Shown: positions 1,200-47,111 of the stretch, piece by piece
How positions within the stretch are numbered: the first letter of the stretch is position 1
How the letters are laid out: every line of letters begins with the position of its first letter
NCBI GenBank assembly: GCA_011772205.1
Contig: WVZY01000022.1
Location: 305,442 to 369,441 of the forward strand
DNA: 64,000 nt
Source of the DNA: Candidatus Latescibacterota bacterium
GTDB taxonomy: Bacteria > Krumholzibacteriota > Krumholzibacteriia > WVZY01
Reading direction: 5' to 3'
Position numbers and translations under genes: made by a program
The notes under the pieces: model-generated
The model's input: only the letters and a program-made list of their open reading frames with translations
What the model was told of the DNA's origin: nothing
Databases searched by the model: none

Positions 1200-2390
1200 T
1201 CATGTTTTGGCCTGGAGCGTGTCATTGATCAGCTGCTCCATCTGCGACACAATCGTGTTCCAGGACATAGACCTTGCCACTTCCAAGCGCGTCTTGATCC
1301 TCTCGCTCCTGCCCGTTTCTTCCAAAGCCTTCCGTATCGCTTCGACCATTTCCTCCGGACCGGCGGCAGTGCTTACAACGTTCGAATACGGCTCGACTTC
1401 CGGGAGTGGCGTGGCAACAGCCGGCAAGCCTGCGGCAAGATATTCTGCCAGTTTCGAAGGAAACGTGTACTGGGTAAATCCCGTTAGCAGATAAGGAATC
1501 AATCCTACGTCAAAATATCGGAAATAATCCCCAAGCGCTGAATGATCAACAGCACCGGTGAGATGAACGTTTGGCAGCCGGGTCAATCCTTTCGTATCGG
1601 TCCCCGGGGACACTGATCCGAGGAGAACGAACGACCAGTCCGTTTTTATCGAAGCACACTGCTTGAGCAGCTCGAAATCCACCCATGGGCCAAGCAAACC
1701 AGCAAAGCCGACAATCGGCTGCTGCATGTTTTCCAAGAATTCTATCTTTTCTCCCCTACCCCGAAACCGTTCGGGATCTACTCCGTTCGGGAAAAAATAC
1801 GTTTTTGGATTAAGCTTTTTCTTCTCTTCGAAAAGCCCGCGTGCGTTGGCGTATACGAGATCAGAGGAACGGGTGAACATTTCCTCGTACGCCGAGAATC
1901 TCGAACGAACGGAGTCGGGAATGAGCGGATGGCCGGAGAACTTGTCGACGCATTGATAGACGAGAACTCTGTGAGGAACGCGGGAGATGCTGTCCCATAC
2001 CACATCGGTCGGGACGCAGGTCCACATAACGATATCTCTAAGATTGTACCGGTCAATAATCCGATTCAATGCCCGCGCTAGCAGAGCGCTGTTCATCCGG
2101 CCGATTGCATCGGGGAGCCTCGGTGTTGGCACTAAAACGGGTTGCACAATCACGGGATATGAGTGACCACCCAGGGGTCTTCTCCCGCTTCCTTCCCGTC
2201 TCCCAAACGAACCGGCAATCCGTCGAAGAATTCTGGAAGCATCGCGGAGCCGCAGATCGCGCCGGCCTCCGAAATTGTCGATATAAAACACCCGATTGTT
2301 CTCCGAAAGTTTCCCGACGATATGATGGGTGGAGTATTTGTACTTGCCGTACCAATCGATGCCGCCAATATACACGATGTTCTTTTCCAT
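1200..2390 (-). CDS. Glycosyltransferase, GT4-like
   Basis: ORF 1200..2408; ATG at 2390 (MEKNIVYIGGIDWYGKYKYSTHHI) preferred over GTG at 2408. C-terminal FPSKLAEYLAAGLPAVATPLPEVE is typical of GT-B enzymes. Confidence 0.8.
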   Translation of the reverse strand: MEKNIVYIGGIDWYGKYKYSTHHIVGKLSENNRVFYIDNFGGRRDLRLRDASRILRRIAGSFGRREGSGRRPLGGHSYPVIVQPVLVPTPRLPDAIGRMNSALLARALNRIIDRYNLRDIVMWTCVPTDVVWDSISRVPHRVLVYQCVDKFSGHPLIPDSVRSRFSAYEEMFTRSSDLVYANARGLFEEKKKLNPKTYFFPNGVDPERFRGRGEKIEFLENMQQPIVGFAGLLGPWVDFELLKQCASIKTDWSFVLLGSVSPGTDTKGLTRLPNVHLTGAVDHSALGDYFRYFDVGLIPYLLTGFTQYTFPSKLAEYLAAGLPAVATPLPEVEPYSNVVSTAAGPEEMVEAIRKALEETGRSERIKTRLEVARSMSWNTIVSQMEQLINDTLQAKT

Positions 2391-15752: not shown

Positions 15753-15892
15753 TCGAACACTCTCTCTCCCATGGAATGCGGGCTGCTGGTGAGAAACTCT
15801 ACACGCCGTGCAAACATGCGGCAACATGTTTCTATGAGCCCTATGCTCACCATGGATCGTGGGTGACCGTTTACGCGGAGCGAGCAAATAGT

Positions 15893-16001
15893 GCCGTGTG
15901 ATGGGGGTGATGAACCATTGCGCGGAGCGAGGAGGGATCGCCCGCTGCAGGCGGGAAGCCGGCCGAAGCGGGCGTGTGGTGAGGAGCCCCCATTACACAG
16001 C
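15893..16001. repeat. Intergenic dispersed repeat, full copy 1 (109 bp, 15-bp imperfect terminal inverted repeats)
   Basis: GCCGTGTGATGGGGG (15893-15907) against CCCCCATTACACAGC (15987-16001), 13/15 paired; body aligns with 44258-44365. Confidence 0.85.
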
Positions 16002-16028
16002 AATCATGCACGAGCCACCCACCGCAGT

Positions 16029-16077
16029 CGGATAGCCGACCAAAGCGGGCGAAGGTAAAGAATCCTCATCACGCAGC
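16029..16077. repeat. Partial (3'-half) copy of the same repeat
   Basis: CGGATAGCCGACCAAAGCGGGCGAAGGTAAAGAATCCTCATCACGCAGC matches 40/49 to the 3' half of the 44 kb copy (hand count). Confidence 0.75.
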
Positions 16078-20311: not shown

Positions 20312-20585
20312 GAGATCGTGCACCTGCCTTTGAACGCTCGCACCGCCCTCTTCTCGAGGGTTAGCTCCGAACAGGTTGCCCCGCATCACATGGACCGACA
20401 CCACTTACCGCTGCTACCTTCCGGTCCTGACGGGGTTCGTGGGCGACCATTGCGCGGGACCTGCCCTTCAACACCACTTCCCCGCGAAGAGACAACGACA
20501 CCAGACGCCCGGGGGCAGGAATTCGGCCCCGCTATAGCGGATTGCGGGAAAAGGGCACCGCTACCTCCCCGCCTAGCACGATCTC
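20312..20585 (-). ncRNA. ffs: Signal recognition particle RNA, large (Alu-domain) bacterial type, ~274 nt
   Basis: Minus strand has the universal GTCAGGACCGGAAGGTAGCAGC apex, an Alu-like 5' segment GTGCTAGGCGGGGAGGTAGCGGTGCCC...CCGCAATCCGCTATAGCGGGGCCGAATTCC, and perfectly pairing 10-bp ends GAGATCGTGC/GCACGATCTC. Confidence 0.88.
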
Positions 20586-20601
20586 GTTGGGGCTATGTGA
20601 A

Positions 20602-20677
20602 TGGTGGAGATGAGCGGACTCGAACCGCCGACCCCCTCGTTGCGAACGAGGTGCTCTCCCAGCTGAGCTACATCCCC
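20602..20677 (-). tRNA. tRNA-Ala (anticodon CGC), CCA encoded
   Basis: GGGGATGTAGCTCAGCTGGGAGAGCACCTCGTTCGCAACGAGGGGGTCGGCGGTTCGAGTCCGCTCATCTCCACCA; full cloverleaf. Confidence 0.96.
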
Positions 20678-20692
20678 ACCCAGCAACCTAAA

Positions 20693-20782
20693 TGGCGGAG
20701 AGAGGGGGATTCGAACCCCCGGAGCGCTTACGCACTCAACGGTTTTCGAGACCGCCCCATTCAACCACTCTGGCATCTCTCC
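20693..20782 (-). tRNA. tRNA-Ser (anticodon CGA), CCA encoded
   Basis: GGAGAGATGCCAGAGTGGTTGAATGGGGCGGTCTCGAAAACCGTTGAGTGCGTAAGCGCTCCGGGGGTTCGAATCCCCCTCTCTCCGCCA; long variable arm. Confidence 0.95.
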
Positions 20783-21202: not shown

Positions 21203-21293
21203 TGGCGGAGAGAGAGGGATTCGAACCCTCGGAGCACTTCCGTGCTCACACGATTTCCAGTCGTGCCGATTCAGCCAGCTCTCGCATCTCTCC
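21203..21293 (-). tRNA. tRNA-Ser (anticodon GGA), CCA encoded
   Basis: GGAGAGATGCGAGAGCTGGCTGAATCGGCACGACTGGAAATCGTGTGAGCACGGAAGTGCTCCGAGGGTTCGAATCCCTCTCTCTCCGCCA. Confidence 0.95.
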
Positions 21294-42839: not shown

Positions 42840-44189
42840 CTACCCCTCCAGCAACACCTTGAACGGTTCTTCGATGGCTTCCACGATCCAGCGCAGAAAC
42901 CGCGCCGCATCGGCTCCGTCGATTAGCCGGTGATCATAGGAGAGCGTGAGCGGGACGATGAGCCGTCCTTCGAATTCTCCATCCACATACAACGGTTCGA
43001 CACGCGAACGCGACACACCAAGAATTGCTACTTCTGGCGTGTTAACAATGGGAGTAAAACCTGTTCCGCCGATGCCGCCCAGATTGGAAATAGTGAAACA
43101 TCCGCCCTTCATTTCTTCGAGTGATATCGTTTTGTTCCGGGCTTTCTGCGCCATTTGTGTCAGCTCTACCGACAGCTCGACGATATTTTTTCTGTCCACG
43201 TCACGGACGACGGGTACGAGGAGACCGCGGTCCGTGTCCACGGCGACGCCGATGTGATAGTACTTTTTGTAAACGATCTCGCTCCTCGCCAGGTCGATGG
43301 ACGCGTTGAACTGAGGAAACACCTTCAAGGCGGCGCTGACGATCTTCAAGAGTATCGCCGTCAATGTGAGCTTGCCTCCTGCATCCTCCGCCTTTTTGCC
43401 ATAATCTTCGCGGAATTTCTCCAGCTGCGTGATGTCGGCTTTTTCGAAGTGGGTGACGTGCGCAACGGTGGTCCACGCATGCCCCAGGTGTTCGGCCGTT
43501 TTCCTCCTCACTTTGTTCATCGGCTCGCGCGCCACCTCACCCCACTTCGCGAAATCGGGGAGCGGCTCCAAGGGAATTCCCGCCGGCACAGCAGCGAAGG
43601 CGGCGCGCTGTTCACTCAGCGCTTTTGCGTGGCGCTTGATGTCGTCTATCGAAATTCTGCCTCCGGGGCCGGTGCCGGAGACTCCGTTGATGTCGATGCC
43701 GATCTCCCGGGCAAAGCGGCGAACCGACGGGGCGGCCGGTGCGGCTTCATCGGGCTTCTGGGATGCCAACGGCACGAAAGACGCCGGGGTCGCTTCAGGT
43801 ACCATCTCTTGCATCGCAGTTTTTGTCGGAACAGCATCTTCAGGTGCCTTCTCCGCGGCGGCTTCCTTCGGCGACACAGGTTCCGGTTCCACCGCTGGGG
43901 CGGATTTCTCAGCGGGTGCTGGTTTCTCCACGGCTTTTTTCACGGCTTCGGCTTTGGATGACACGGTGAGGATTTTCTGCCCGACTTTTACATCTTCGCC
44001 CTCTTGCACAAAGATTTCCTTTATTACGCCGCTAATGCTGGACGGCACTTCGAACACGGCTTTGTCCGTTTCCAATTCCACAATGGACTGATCCATCTCC
44101 AATTCGTCCCCAACGGAAACGAGTATTTTCGCGATGGTGCCGTATTCAACACCTTCTCCCAGATCGGGTAATGTAAACTCGACGTCCAT
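42840..44189 (-). CDS. aceF: Dihydrolipoamide acetyltransferase (E2), one lipoyl domain
   Basis: ELETDKAVFEVPSSISGVI lipoyl site, RRFAREIGIDINGVSGTGPGGRISIDDI peripheral-subunit domain, LTLSYDHRLIDGADAARFL catalytic motif. Confidence 0.95.
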   Translation of the reverse strand: MDVEFTLPDLGEGVEYGTIAKILVSVGDELEMDQSIVELETDKAVFEVPSSISGVIKEIFVQEGEDVKVGQKILTVSSKAEAVKKAVEKPAPAEKSAPAVEPEPVSPKEAAAEKAPEDAVPTKTAMQEMVPEATPASFVPLASQKPDEAAPAAPSVRRFAREIGIDINGVSGTGPGGRISIDDIKRHAKALSEQRAAFAAVPAGIPLEPLPDFAKWGEVAREPMNKVRRKTAEHLGHAWTTVAHVTHFEKADITQLEKFREDYGKKAEDAGGKLTLTAILLKIVSAALKVFPQFNASIDLARSEIVYKKYYHIGVAVDTDRGLLVPVVRDVDRKNIVELSVELTQMAQKARNKTISLEEMKGGCFTISNLGGIGGTGFTPIVNTPEVAILGVSRSRVEPLYVDGEFEGRLIVPLTLSYDHRLIDGADAARFLRWIVEAIEEPFKVLLEG

Positions 44190-44257
44190 GCGGCTAAGTC
44201 CTCCCGGCTTTAATTCGCCTATTGCTCAATTGAATTCGGATCATCTTCGTATAGTCG

Positions 44258-44365
44258 GCTGCGTGATGGGGGCGACGAACCGCTGCGCGCAACGAGCGAG
44301 GATCCTCCGCCGGAGGCGGATAGCCGAGCGAAGTGGGCGCAGGTGAGGAACCCCCATCACTCAGC
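44258..44365. repeat. Intergenic dispersed repeat, full copy 2 (108 bp), between aceE and aceF
   Basis: GCTGCGTGATGGGGG (44258-44272) / CCCCCATCACTCAGC (44351-44365), 14/15 paired; body aligns with 15893-16001; internal hairpin TCCGCC-GGA-GGCGGA. Confidence 0.87.
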
Positions 44366-44426
44366 AATCCTCCTTGTTCCGCTCAAAAATTCGTAACCCC
44401 CTCGTCGCCTCCTTACTCGCATCCAT

Positions 44427-47111
44427 TCATCCCGCTATCGGATCAACTTTCTCCGGATTGATATCCAAATCGATCATTGCCTTTTTAACGGTCTCCGGTT
44501 CCATCTTCCCTTCGAGCGCGAGGCAGTGCAGGGCAGCAAGTACGATATACCGTTCGTCCACTTCGAACAAATCGCGCAGATGCCTCCGGCCATCGCTTCT
44601 GCCAAACCCATCCGTTCCCAAAGAGACCATTCGCCCGGGAATCCATTTGTGCACGGATTCGGGGAGTGCCTTGACATAATCCGTTGCGGCAACGAATACG
44701 CCCCGCGAGTCCCAAAGCGCCTGGGTGAGATACGGTACCCTGGGTTTGCTGTCCGGATGGAGCATATTCCAGCGGTCCACAGAGAGTCCATCGTTATGAA
44801 GCTCTTTATAACTGGTCACGCTCCACACGTCTGCGGCCACGTTATATTTTTTCTCCAGAATCCCCTGCGCTTCAACCGCTTTGTTCAATATCGCACCGCT
44901 TCCAAGGAGATGCGCCCTCATGCTCGCTTTTCCCTTGTTCGAATTCCGCAGCCTATAAATGCCTCTGATGATCCCTTCCTTCACACCCTCGGGCATGCGC
45001 GGCTGCACATAGCTTTCGTTCATCACGGTGAGATAGTAGAATACATTTTCCTGTTTTTCATACATTCGTTCGAGGCCGTCACGGATAATCACGGCCAGCT
45101 CGTACGCGAACGCAGGATCGTACGCCTTCAGCGTGGGATAGTGATATGCGAGGAGATGGCTTTGCCCGTCCTGATGCTGCAGGCCCTCGCCGGCAAGCGT
45201 GGTTCGCCCGGATGTTCCGCCGACGAGAAATCCGCGCGTCCGCATATCGGCGGCTGCCCAGATCAGATCACCGATTCGCTGGAAGCCGAACATCGAGTAG
45301 AATACAAAGAACGGAATCGTATTGATACCGTGAGTCGCATAGGCTGTCCCGGCCGCGATAAAAGATGACATCGCGCCGGCTTCGTTTATTCCCTCTTCCA
45401 AAATCTGTCCGTCTCGCGCCTCTCTATAATAGAGAAGGTTCTCTTTGTCGACCGGCTCATAAAGCTGCCCTATATGCGAATATATGCCTGCCTGACGAAA
45501 CAGCGCCTCCATTCCGAATGTACGCGCTTCATCCGGTATGATCGGCACGATGAGCTTACCGATATCGTTATCTCGAAGGAGTTTCGATAGCAGACGAACG
45601 AATGCCATCGTTGTTGCCACTTCTCTGCCATCGGTGCCGTCGTAAAATTCCTCGAAAAGCGTTTCCGACGGCGCCGGGAATGGTTTGCTCCTTGTCATGC
45701 GCTGCGGTACATAGCCACTCAACTGCTGACGCCTCTCGCGCAGGTACTTAAGGATCGGACCGTTCTCATCAGGCCTGTAAAACGGGAGCGTATCCACATC
45801 TTCATCCGAAATGGGAATACCGAAACGCGAGCGGAATTCCTTCAACTCTTCCTCGTTCAGTTTCTTCTGCTGGTGGGTAATGTTCTTACCTTCTCCGGCT
45901 TCGCCCAAACCATACCCCTTGATCGTCCGGGCTAGAATCACCGTTGGAGAACCTTTGTGCTCCACCGCCGCTTTATAGGCCGCATAGACCTTCTCCGGAT
46001 CGTGCCCGCCCAACCTCAATTTCTCCAGCTGCTCGTCGGACATGTGCTCGACCATTTTCAACAAACGAGGATCTTTTCCGAAGAAATGTTCCCTAATGTA
46101 CGTGCCTCCTCTAACGATATAATTTTGATATTCGCCGTCGACCACTTCGCCCATTCTTTCAACGAGCACGCCATCTTCATCCTTTGCGAGAAGCTCATCC
46201 CAATCGCTCCCCCATATGACTTTGATAACGTTCCAGCCGGCACCGCGAAATACTGTTTCGAGCTCCTGAATGATGTGACCGTTCCCGCGCACCGGTCCAT
46301 CGAGACGTTGGAGGTTGCAGTTGATCACGAAGATGAGATTATCCAATTTTTCGCGTGCGGGGAGCGTGATCGCACCCAGTGACTCTGGTTCGTCCGTCTC
46401 ACCATCCCCGAGAAAACACCACACTTTTTCATGACATGTTTTCTTAAGACCTTGATCTTCCAAATAGCGATTGAAGCGCGCCTGATAGATCGCCATGATC
46501 GGGCTCAATCCCATGGACACGGTTGGAAACTGCCAAAAATTCGGCATGAGCCACGGATGCGGATAAGAAGGCAGCCCGCCTTCCGGATGATGCTCGTGGC
46601 GAAAGCATTTCAGCTGTTCCACGGAAATCCGCCCTTCGAGAAACGCTCTTGCATAGATTCCCGGGGCGGCATGTCCCTGGAAATAGACCTGGTCCCCTCC
46701 ATGGTCCTCCGTCGGCCCGCGGAAGAAATGGTTGAAGCCGACCTCATACAGCGTGGCGGCCGACGCAAAGGTCGAGATGTGGCCGCCAATGCCCTCTTCT
46801 TCACGGTTCGCCCGGACGACCATGGCCATCGCATTCCAGCGGATAATGCTCTTGATGCGCCGCTCGATCTCACGGCTTCCCGGAAAAGTCGGCTGCTCCT
46901 CCACAGGAATCGTGTTGATGTAAGGCGTATTCGCCGAAAAGGGCAGCTTGATGCCTGCAGCATGAGCATGATCCTGAAGCTCGCTCAGGAGTTCTCTAAC
47001 GCGGTCCGGTCCTCCGCGGTGGATAACGTGATCCAAGGACTCCAGCCATTCGTGGGTTTCGATTTGTTCGAGTTCCATGTTTCTTTCATAGTCTTGTTCT
47101 TTGCCACTCAT
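44427..47111 (-). CDS. aceE: Pyruvate dehydrogenase E1, homodimeric type
   Basis: GGPDRVRELLSELQDHAHAAGIKLPFSANTPYINTIP, GGHISTFASAATLYEVGFNHFFRG, CFLGDGETDEPESLGAITLPAREKLDNLIFVINCNLQRLDGPVRGNG. Confidence 0.98.
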   Translation of the reverse strand: MSGKEQDYERNMELEQIETHEWLESLDHVIHRGGPDRVRELLSELQDHAHAAGIKLPFSANTPYINTIPVEEQPTFPGSREIERRIKSIIRWNAMAMVVRANREEEGIGGHISTFASAATLYEVGFNHFFRGPTEDHGGDQVYFQGHAAPGIYARAFLEGRISVEQLKCFRHEHHPEGGLPSYPHPWLMPNFWQFPTVSMGLSPIMAIYQARFNRYLEDQGLKKTCHEKVWCFLGDGETDEPESLGAITLPAREKLDNLIFVINCNLQRLDGPVRGNGHIIQELETVFRGAGWNVIKVIWGSDWDELLAKDEDGVLVERMGEVVDGEYQNYIVRGGTYIREHFFGKDPRLLKMVEHMSDEQLEKLRLGGHDPEKVYAAYKAAVEHKGSPTVILARTIKGYGLGEAGEGKNITHQQKKLNEEELKEFRSRFGIPISDEDVDTLPFYRPDENGPILKYLRERRQQLSGYVPQRMTRSKPFPAPSETLFEEFYDGTDGREVATTMAFVRLLSKLLRDNDIGKLIVPIIPDEARTFGMEALFRQAGIYSHIGQLYEPVDKENLLYYREARDGQILEEGINEAGAMSSFIAAGTAYATHGINTIPFFVFYSMFGFQRIGDLIWAAADMRTRGFLVGGTSGRTTLAGEGLQHQDGQSHLLAYHYPTLKAYDPAFAYELAVIIRDGLERMYEKQENVFYYLTVMNESYVQPRMPEGVKEGIIRGIYRLRNSNKGKASMRAHLLGSGAILNKAVEAQGILEKKYNVAADVWSVTSYKELHNDGLSVDRWNMLHPDSKPRVPYLTQALWDSRGVFVAATDYVKALPESVHKWIPGRMVSLGTDGFGRSDGRRHLRDLFEVDERYIVLAALHCLALEGKMEPETVKKAMIDLDINPEKVDPIAG

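What the first reader, a model, noticed from the sequence alone, without database searches (positions are those of the whole stretch)
15859..16077. Cluster of a new-looking ~108-bp repeat with 15-bp terminal inverted repeats
A full copy (15893-16001) has ends GCCGTGTGATGGGGG / CCCCCATTACACAGC and an internal hairpin (CCCGC-TGCAG-GCGGG). A 3'-half copy follows at 16029-16077 (40/49 identical to the 44 kb copy). A weaker 5'-half-like segment sharing CGCGGAGCGAG lies just upstream (~15859-15887). Full-length foldback, intergenic position and partial tandem copies suggest a REP/BIME- or MITE-like family. I do not recognise it.
Basis: seen in the sequence. Interest (0 to 1): 0.72.

Follow-up and report, generated by a model that had tools for sequence, protein, structure and literature searches.

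The report
Intergenic palindrome family with changeable arms
The window holds copies of an apparently undescribed family of about 110-base palindromic DNA repeats, present dozens of times between the genes of this bacterium and its relatives, in which the tip of the hairpin is nearly constant while the two stem arms differ from copy to copy (completely so in the relatives) yet still pair with each other.

Summary
The 15.9-kb cluster holds one full element (15893-16001), an extra right half (16020-16077) and an upstream left-half remnant; 44258-44365 is a second full copy. The genome carries at least 51 copies. Five genomes of four related genera in the same family have it too. 75 other genomes of the class gave only four weak hits. 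Nothing was found in Rfam (gathering scores), plasmids, phages or E. coli.

The family is a long hairpin. A ~52-nt core with tandem G·A mismatches is conserved. The flanking arms of about 25-30 bp are not fixed terminal repeats. In relative G004, cores are 90% identical and arms about 30% identical, yet each left arm pairs best with its own right arm in 20 of 21 copies. Covariation is overwhelming (0/500 shuffles).

Copies lie between genes, nearer gene 3' ends, without orientation bias. Arm mismatches are about as often A·C as G·U, which favours a DNA palindrome over a transcribed RNA hairpin. No RAYT-type transposase was found in this genome, so it is not a RAYT/REPIN system. An IS110-like element sits at one exact core position in many copies.

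Verdict: a new REP/ERIC-like family with unusual arm turnover. How it spreads is unproven. The host could not be named.

The parts
15862..15887 (+). left-half (LH) remnant upstream of the full copy
   Evidence: LH profile 14.3 bits, E 0.0046; best random score 9.9 bits
15892..15938 (+). left half of the full element, arm type X (left arm plus left side of core)
   Evidence: LHX profile 43.3 bits
15942..16002 (+). right half of the full element, arm type X
   Evidence: RHX profile 50.7 bits
15922..15973 (+). conserved core (GCGGAGCGAG..GATC-hairpin-AAGCC..GAAGCGGGC) with tandem G.A mismatches
   Evidence: core profile and alignment A1; covariation
16020..16077 (+). extra right half, tandem to the full element
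   Evidence: RHX profile 49.6 bits
44258..44303 (+). left half (type X) of the second full copy, between pdh E1 (44427-47111, -) and E2 (42840-44189, -) genes
   Evidence: LHX 41.1 bits; ORFs
44306..44366 (+). right half (type X) of the second full copy
   Evidence: RHX 63.1 bits
44287..44338 (+). conserved core of the second copy
44368..44401 (-). left-half remnant in inverted orientation next to the second copy
   Evidence: LHX 12.8 bits, E 0.014; weak, best random 9.9 bits

Best explanation
This is a family-restricted, non-coding, dispersed palindromic DNA element of about 110-130 bp that works at the DNA level like REP/BIME or ERIC elements. Shown: each copy is two arms around a conserved core, and the whole folds into one long hairpin. 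The core keeps its sequence, including tandem G.A mismatches on one strand, while the arms keep only their complementarity. Copies sit between genes, nearer to gene 3' ends. In this genome, left and right halves have multiplied into mosaic arrays with two alternating arm types. Inferred: the hairpin forms in single-stranded DNA (for example during replication) or as a cruciform. A protein reads the G.A-rich core, and the arms serve only as a stem. Copies have been dispersed by an unidentified activity that acts in trans. Arm complementarity is kept by selection for the stem, by hairpin-templated copying of one arm onto the other, or by both.
For: Copies: 66 blastn matches in the own genome. 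The covariance model finds 51 or more in G000 and G004, 13, 10 and 15 in G001-G003 and 1 in G005. Fold: the consensus folds end to end at -71.1 kcal/mol (z -8.0) for type X and -66.3 (z -6.6) for type Y; the window copies also fold as DNA, z -4.2 and -3.5. Covariation: 84% of cells paired, at most 44% when slid; 269 double-change cells; 0/500 shuffles. Own arms pair best in 20/21, 10/11, 5/5 and 6/8 copies of G004, G001, G002 and G003. In G004 core identity is 0.90, arm identity about 0.3, and own pairing 0.80-1.00 at positions 9-29. The inner G.A tandem is present in 48 of 54 rows. Context: none of 90 placeable copies lies inside a gene; orientation to tandem genes is 25 versus 33; 22 convergent versus 10 divergent. 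Arm mismatches are G.U 63 versus A.C 51 in G004, so neither strand is favoured as RNA. Mosaic arrays: left-half neighbours alternate in type 34 versus 13, p 0.003.
Against: No transposition event was observed. In G005 (same genus as G004, about 70-77% DNA identity) one site lacks the element (31 versus 287 bp between the genes) and another holds a hairpin with a different core and arms, so insertion and loss cannot be told apart. No mobilising enzyme was found. The G.A mismatches are strand-specific, which would also suit an RNA read from that strand. With G000 included, G.U exceeds A.C slightly (125:92, p 0.03).
Confidence: 0.6

Rival explanations
1. The hairpins act in RNA: they are 3'-UTR or inter-cistronic structures that stabilise, process or partly terminate mRNA, and compensatory changes come from selection on the transcript.
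For: Covariation of the whole stem. Nearer to gene 3' ends than to 5' ends (median 75 versus 180 nt in G004). The 44-kb copy sits between the pdh E1 and E2 genes on one strand. ERIC elements act this way in Yersinia (PMC2229807).
Against: No orientation bias to tandem genes (25:33, p 0.36). G.U is not clearly preferred over A.C outside G000 (85:70, p 0.26). No T-rich tail after the arms. The other strand has T.C mismatches, so only one orientation would make the same RNA.
Confidence: 0.2
2. Arm complementarity is a mutational by-product: the core primes hairpin copying (template switching), which keeps rewriting one arm from the other, with no function needed.
For: Arms are nearly random between copies but almost fully paired. 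Block-wise differences, for example L064 and L074 share outer ends but not the middle of the arm. Template switching can create and maintain perfect stems (PMC8794818).
Against: The same process should remove the G.A mismatches in the core, yet 48 of 54 rows keep the inner one; only a few G001 copies have turned it into Watson-Crick pairs. Many paired positions carry one-sided differences between copies (63 versus 30 compensated in 12 pairs; ungapped and crude).
Confidence: 0.3
3. A classical MITE of a DDE transposon whose terminal repeats are the 15-bp arms.
For: Terminal inverted repeats, 110-bp size, intergenic dispersal.
Against: Arms are not conserved between copies in four related genomes. 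Every full-length match in the own genome is about 100 nt, none flanks a transposase, and halves separated by a long insert are explained by one IS inserted in the core.
Confidence: 0.1
4. REP/REPIN elements moved by a RAYT.
For: High copy number, extragenic, hairpins, mosaic clusters, target of an IS110-like IS, as REPs are (PMC1525189).
Against: No PF01797 in G000, G001, G003, G004 or G005; one weak hit in G002, without a core nearby. REPs are 20-40 nt, whereas this is a single 110-130 bp hairpin.
Confidence: 0.05

Closest known systems
ERIC / IRU / RU-1 (127-bp enterobacterial intergenic repeat)
   Same: Size, long imperfect end-to-end hairpin, intergenic, many copies, no known enzyme (PMC2229807)
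   Different: No sequence match in 5,426 E. coli genomes; here the arms differ by locus and the central core is the conserved part
REP / BIME / REPIN
   Same: Extragenic, dispersed, hairpin-forming, mosaic clusters, target of site-specific IS110-family elements (PMC3116915, PMC1525189)
   Different: No RAYT in the genome; longer single hairpin; arms variable and core constant; modules run in the same direction and nest, unlike alternating inverted REPs
BOX elements of pneumococcus (modular boxA-boxB-boxC; from own knowledge)
   Same: Modular, with variable numbers of internal units
   Different: No sequence relation was tested; here left-half and right-half units multiply on either side of a core
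Correia/NEMIS and other bacterial MITEs
   Same: About 100-155 bp, terminal inverted repeats, partial copies (PMC2229807)
   Different: Those have conserved terminal repeats; here the ends are the least conserved part

Membership tests
REP/REPIN | high copy number, extragenic | tested here: met
   66 matches in 4.13 Mb; 0 of 90 placeable copies inside genes
REP/REPIN | RAYT (Y1 transposase) in the genome, near copies | tested here: not met
   PF01797 absent in G000 (96.5% complete) and in G001, G003, G004, G005; one weak G002 hit without a core
REP/REPIN | 20-40 nt palindrome with conserved GTAG/CGTC tag | tested here: not met
   unit is 110-130 bp and the consensus has no such tag at the stem foot (by inspection)
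MITE | conserved terminal inverted repeats | tested here: not met
   two arm types in G000; locus-specific arms in G001-G004
MITE | target-site duplication | tested here: inconclusive
   relatives too divergent for exact empty sites
MITE | autonomous relative with the same ends | tested here: not met
   no full-length relative with long interior among matches; collapsed repeats in the assembly could hide one
ERIC/IRU | sequence homology to the enterobacterial repeat | tested here: not met
   no match in 5,426 E. coli genomes
Rfam families | match at curated threshold | tested here: not met
   none at gathering score; best chance-level E 0.09
Intrinsic terminator | hairpin followed by T-run | tested here: not met
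   no T enrichment outside the arms in 38 G004 copies
IS110-group target (the inserted IS) | DEDD transposase, long left end, fixed target | tested here: inconclusive
   8 distinct left and 9 right junctions at one core position; left end about 130 nt before ATG reading MERYIG; interior not assembled

The most novel reading that the evidence does not exclude
A self-palindromising element: the conserved G.A-tandem core folds back in single-stranded DNA and primes copying of one flank onto the other, so every copy makes and keeps renewing its own locus-specific perfect stem, and only the core is inherited as sequence.
Probability: 0.2. Interest if true: 0.8.

Novelty: new variant of a known kind. 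Interest (0 to 1): 0.55.

Why it matters
Most bacterial palindromic repeats are recognised by conserved ends. Here the ends are free to change and only their pairing is kept, while the tip of the hairpin is fixed. With dozens of natural copies per genome this is a ready test bed for an open question: are long perfect stems kept by selection or by template-switch copying? It also gives an IS110-like element a fixed landing site outside known REP sequences, which is relevant to how such elements choose targets.

Tried and rejected
RAYT/REPIN: rejected for lack of Y1_Tnp. Rfam family: none. Spread by phage or plasmid: no match. Known E. coli repeat: no match. The core motifs are not printed in any of 5.39 million open papers. 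Arms as pre-existing hairpins hit by a bare core: considered because arms look random between copies, but disfavoured since a residual arm consensus exists within classes. Replication-strand bias in G004: GC skew of the fetched stretches gave no clear replichores, so inconclusive. Exact empty sites: G005 is too divergent. A 400-kb sample of G005 holds one such inverted repeat.

Full report
What is in the window. The second copy at 44258-44365 lies between the genes for pyruvate dehydrogenase E1 and E2, and it has a further inverted left-half remnant at 44368-44401. The 15.9-kb cluster lies between the gene for an MglA-like small GTPase and pgpA.

Genome-wide family. The window is part of an unnamed 4.13-Mb assembly, 96.5% complete. 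A blastn search with the copy gives 66 places, halves included. Splitting the element into a left half (LH, about 47 nt) and a right half (RH, about 60 nt) shows two interchangeable arm types here: X (TGCTGCGTGATGGGGG / CCCCCATCACGCAGCA) and Y (AAGGCTCCGTGGGGG / CCCCCACGGAGCCTT). Clusters are arrays of LH units, one LH-RH core junction, then RH units, all in one direction. Neighbouring LH units alternate in type (34 versus 13, p 0.003), and types at the core junction tend to match (p 0.03). Some clusters are nested, such as X Y | Y X (L008) and Y X | X Y (L004). The window cluster is one such array: (Y) X | X X.

Relatives. Searches of up to 80 genomes of the class found the element only in the same family, in five other genomes. 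The covariance model gives 51 or more copies in G000 and G004 (the scoring limit), 13, 10 and 15 in G001-G003, and 1 in G005. Four weak single hits in other families are at chance level. No match exists in plasmids, phages or E. coli, in Rfam at gathering scores, or in print for the core motifs.

Arms change, the stem stays. In the relatives the ~52-nt core is conserved, but the arms are specific to each locus. The duplex of a copy's own arms is the best of all left-right combinations in 20/21 copies of G004, 10/11 of G001, 5/5 of G002 and 6/8 of G003. In 40 G004 copies mean core identity is 0.90. Arm identity between copies is mostly 0.24-0.55 at positions 9-29, while own pairing there is 0.80-1.00. 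A residual consensus (up to about 1 bit at some arm positions) shows that arms within a class are homologous and have been turned over. On an alignment of 54 copies, the stem has 269 double-change cells, 84% of cells paired against at most 44% for slid versions, and no shuffle of 500 reaches any measure. RNAalifold independently finds 18 of 21 pairs with double changes. Inside the core the non-Watson-Crick positions are tandem G.A: the inner one is GA/GA in 48 of 54 rows.

DNA or RNA. None of 90 placeable copies is inside a gene by a simple codon-usage gene caller. Median distance to a gene 3' end is 75 nt in G004 and 124 in G000, against 180 and 259 nt to a 5' end. Among tandem genes the core strand agrees with transcription 25 times and opposes it 33 times. 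In the arms, G.U and A.C mismatches are about equal in G004 (63 and 51). Selection for an RNA read from the core strand would favour G.U, and only a slight excess appears when G000 is added (125:92, p 0.03). There is no T-run. These points favour a DNA palindrome. They do not exclude a role in RNA for some copies, as ERIC has.

How it may spread and persist. No RAYT-type transposase is found in G000. In relatives only one weak hit exists, without a copy beside it. No autonomous element with matching ends was seen. Comparison with G005 is only suggestive. One G004 site is empty in G005 (31 versus 287 bp between the genes). Another holds a hairpin with other arms and another core at the orthologous place. 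A 400-kb sample of G005 has just that one long inverted repeat. So copy number differs strongly between species of one genus, but the direction (gain or loss) is open. Near-perfect arms that are almost random between copies can come from selection on the stem or from template-switch copying, which is known to make and repair stems (PMC8794818). Retention of the G.A mismatches argues against copying alone.

An IS uses the core as its target. Eight distinct left junctions and nine distinct right junctions of one multicopy IS sit at the same core position, GAGCGAAG^ ... GAAGCGGGAGCG. All nine right junctions have the GGGAGCG variant, which occurs in 8 of 29 uninterrupted copies (chance about 1e-5). 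Its left end is about 130 nt long and leads to ATG reading MERYIG, like the IS110-family proteins elsewhere in this genome. The interior is not assembled, so the family is inferred. Such elements are known to target REPs (PMC1525189, PMC11208160).

Verdict. A new, family-restricted kind of REP/ERIC-like palindromic element. Its structure and covariation are shown. DNA-level action, protein recognition of the core and past mobility are inferred. The host organism could not be named because the named genome collection did not answer.

Noticed in passing
G000 contig ends, loci L081, L087, L098-L105, L172-L181: A multicopy IS110-like insertion sequence (left end GTATCATATGAAAGACACG, right end GACAGGCGCTTTCTATG) is inserted at one exact position of the repeat core in many copies; all nine right junctions carry the GGGAGCG variant.
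   Followed up: partly
L191 (G005:C1:598900-600400), bases 345-512, and L198 9253-9358: At the orthologous place of the G004 L043 element, G005 has a hairpin with a different core (GCGCGGAACCAAGCTCAGCCGG-TAGG-CACCGGC...) and unrelated perfect 16-bp arms.
   Followed up: partly
L062 (G004), 1326-1425 minus strand: A hairpin with a divergent core (TCGGAGCAAGGGAGGATCCCGCGACG...) sits back to back with a normal copy; it may be a second subfamily.
   Followed up: no
L043 and L162 (G004): Two cores about 94 nt apart share an arm, so right-half duplication also occurs outside G000.
   Followed up: no
window 44190-44426: The second copy lies inside the tandem pdh E1-E2 gene pair, so it may affect relative expression of the two subunits.
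   Followed up: no
window 20316-20782 and 21206-21293: Large bacterial SRP RNA and three tRNA genes on the minus strand downstream of the dnaX/recR region (Rfam matches).
   Followed up: no
L171 (G002:C214:3104-3343): The only Y1-transposase-like frame found in the family (23.2 bits), with no repeat core in the surrounding locus.
   Followed up: partly
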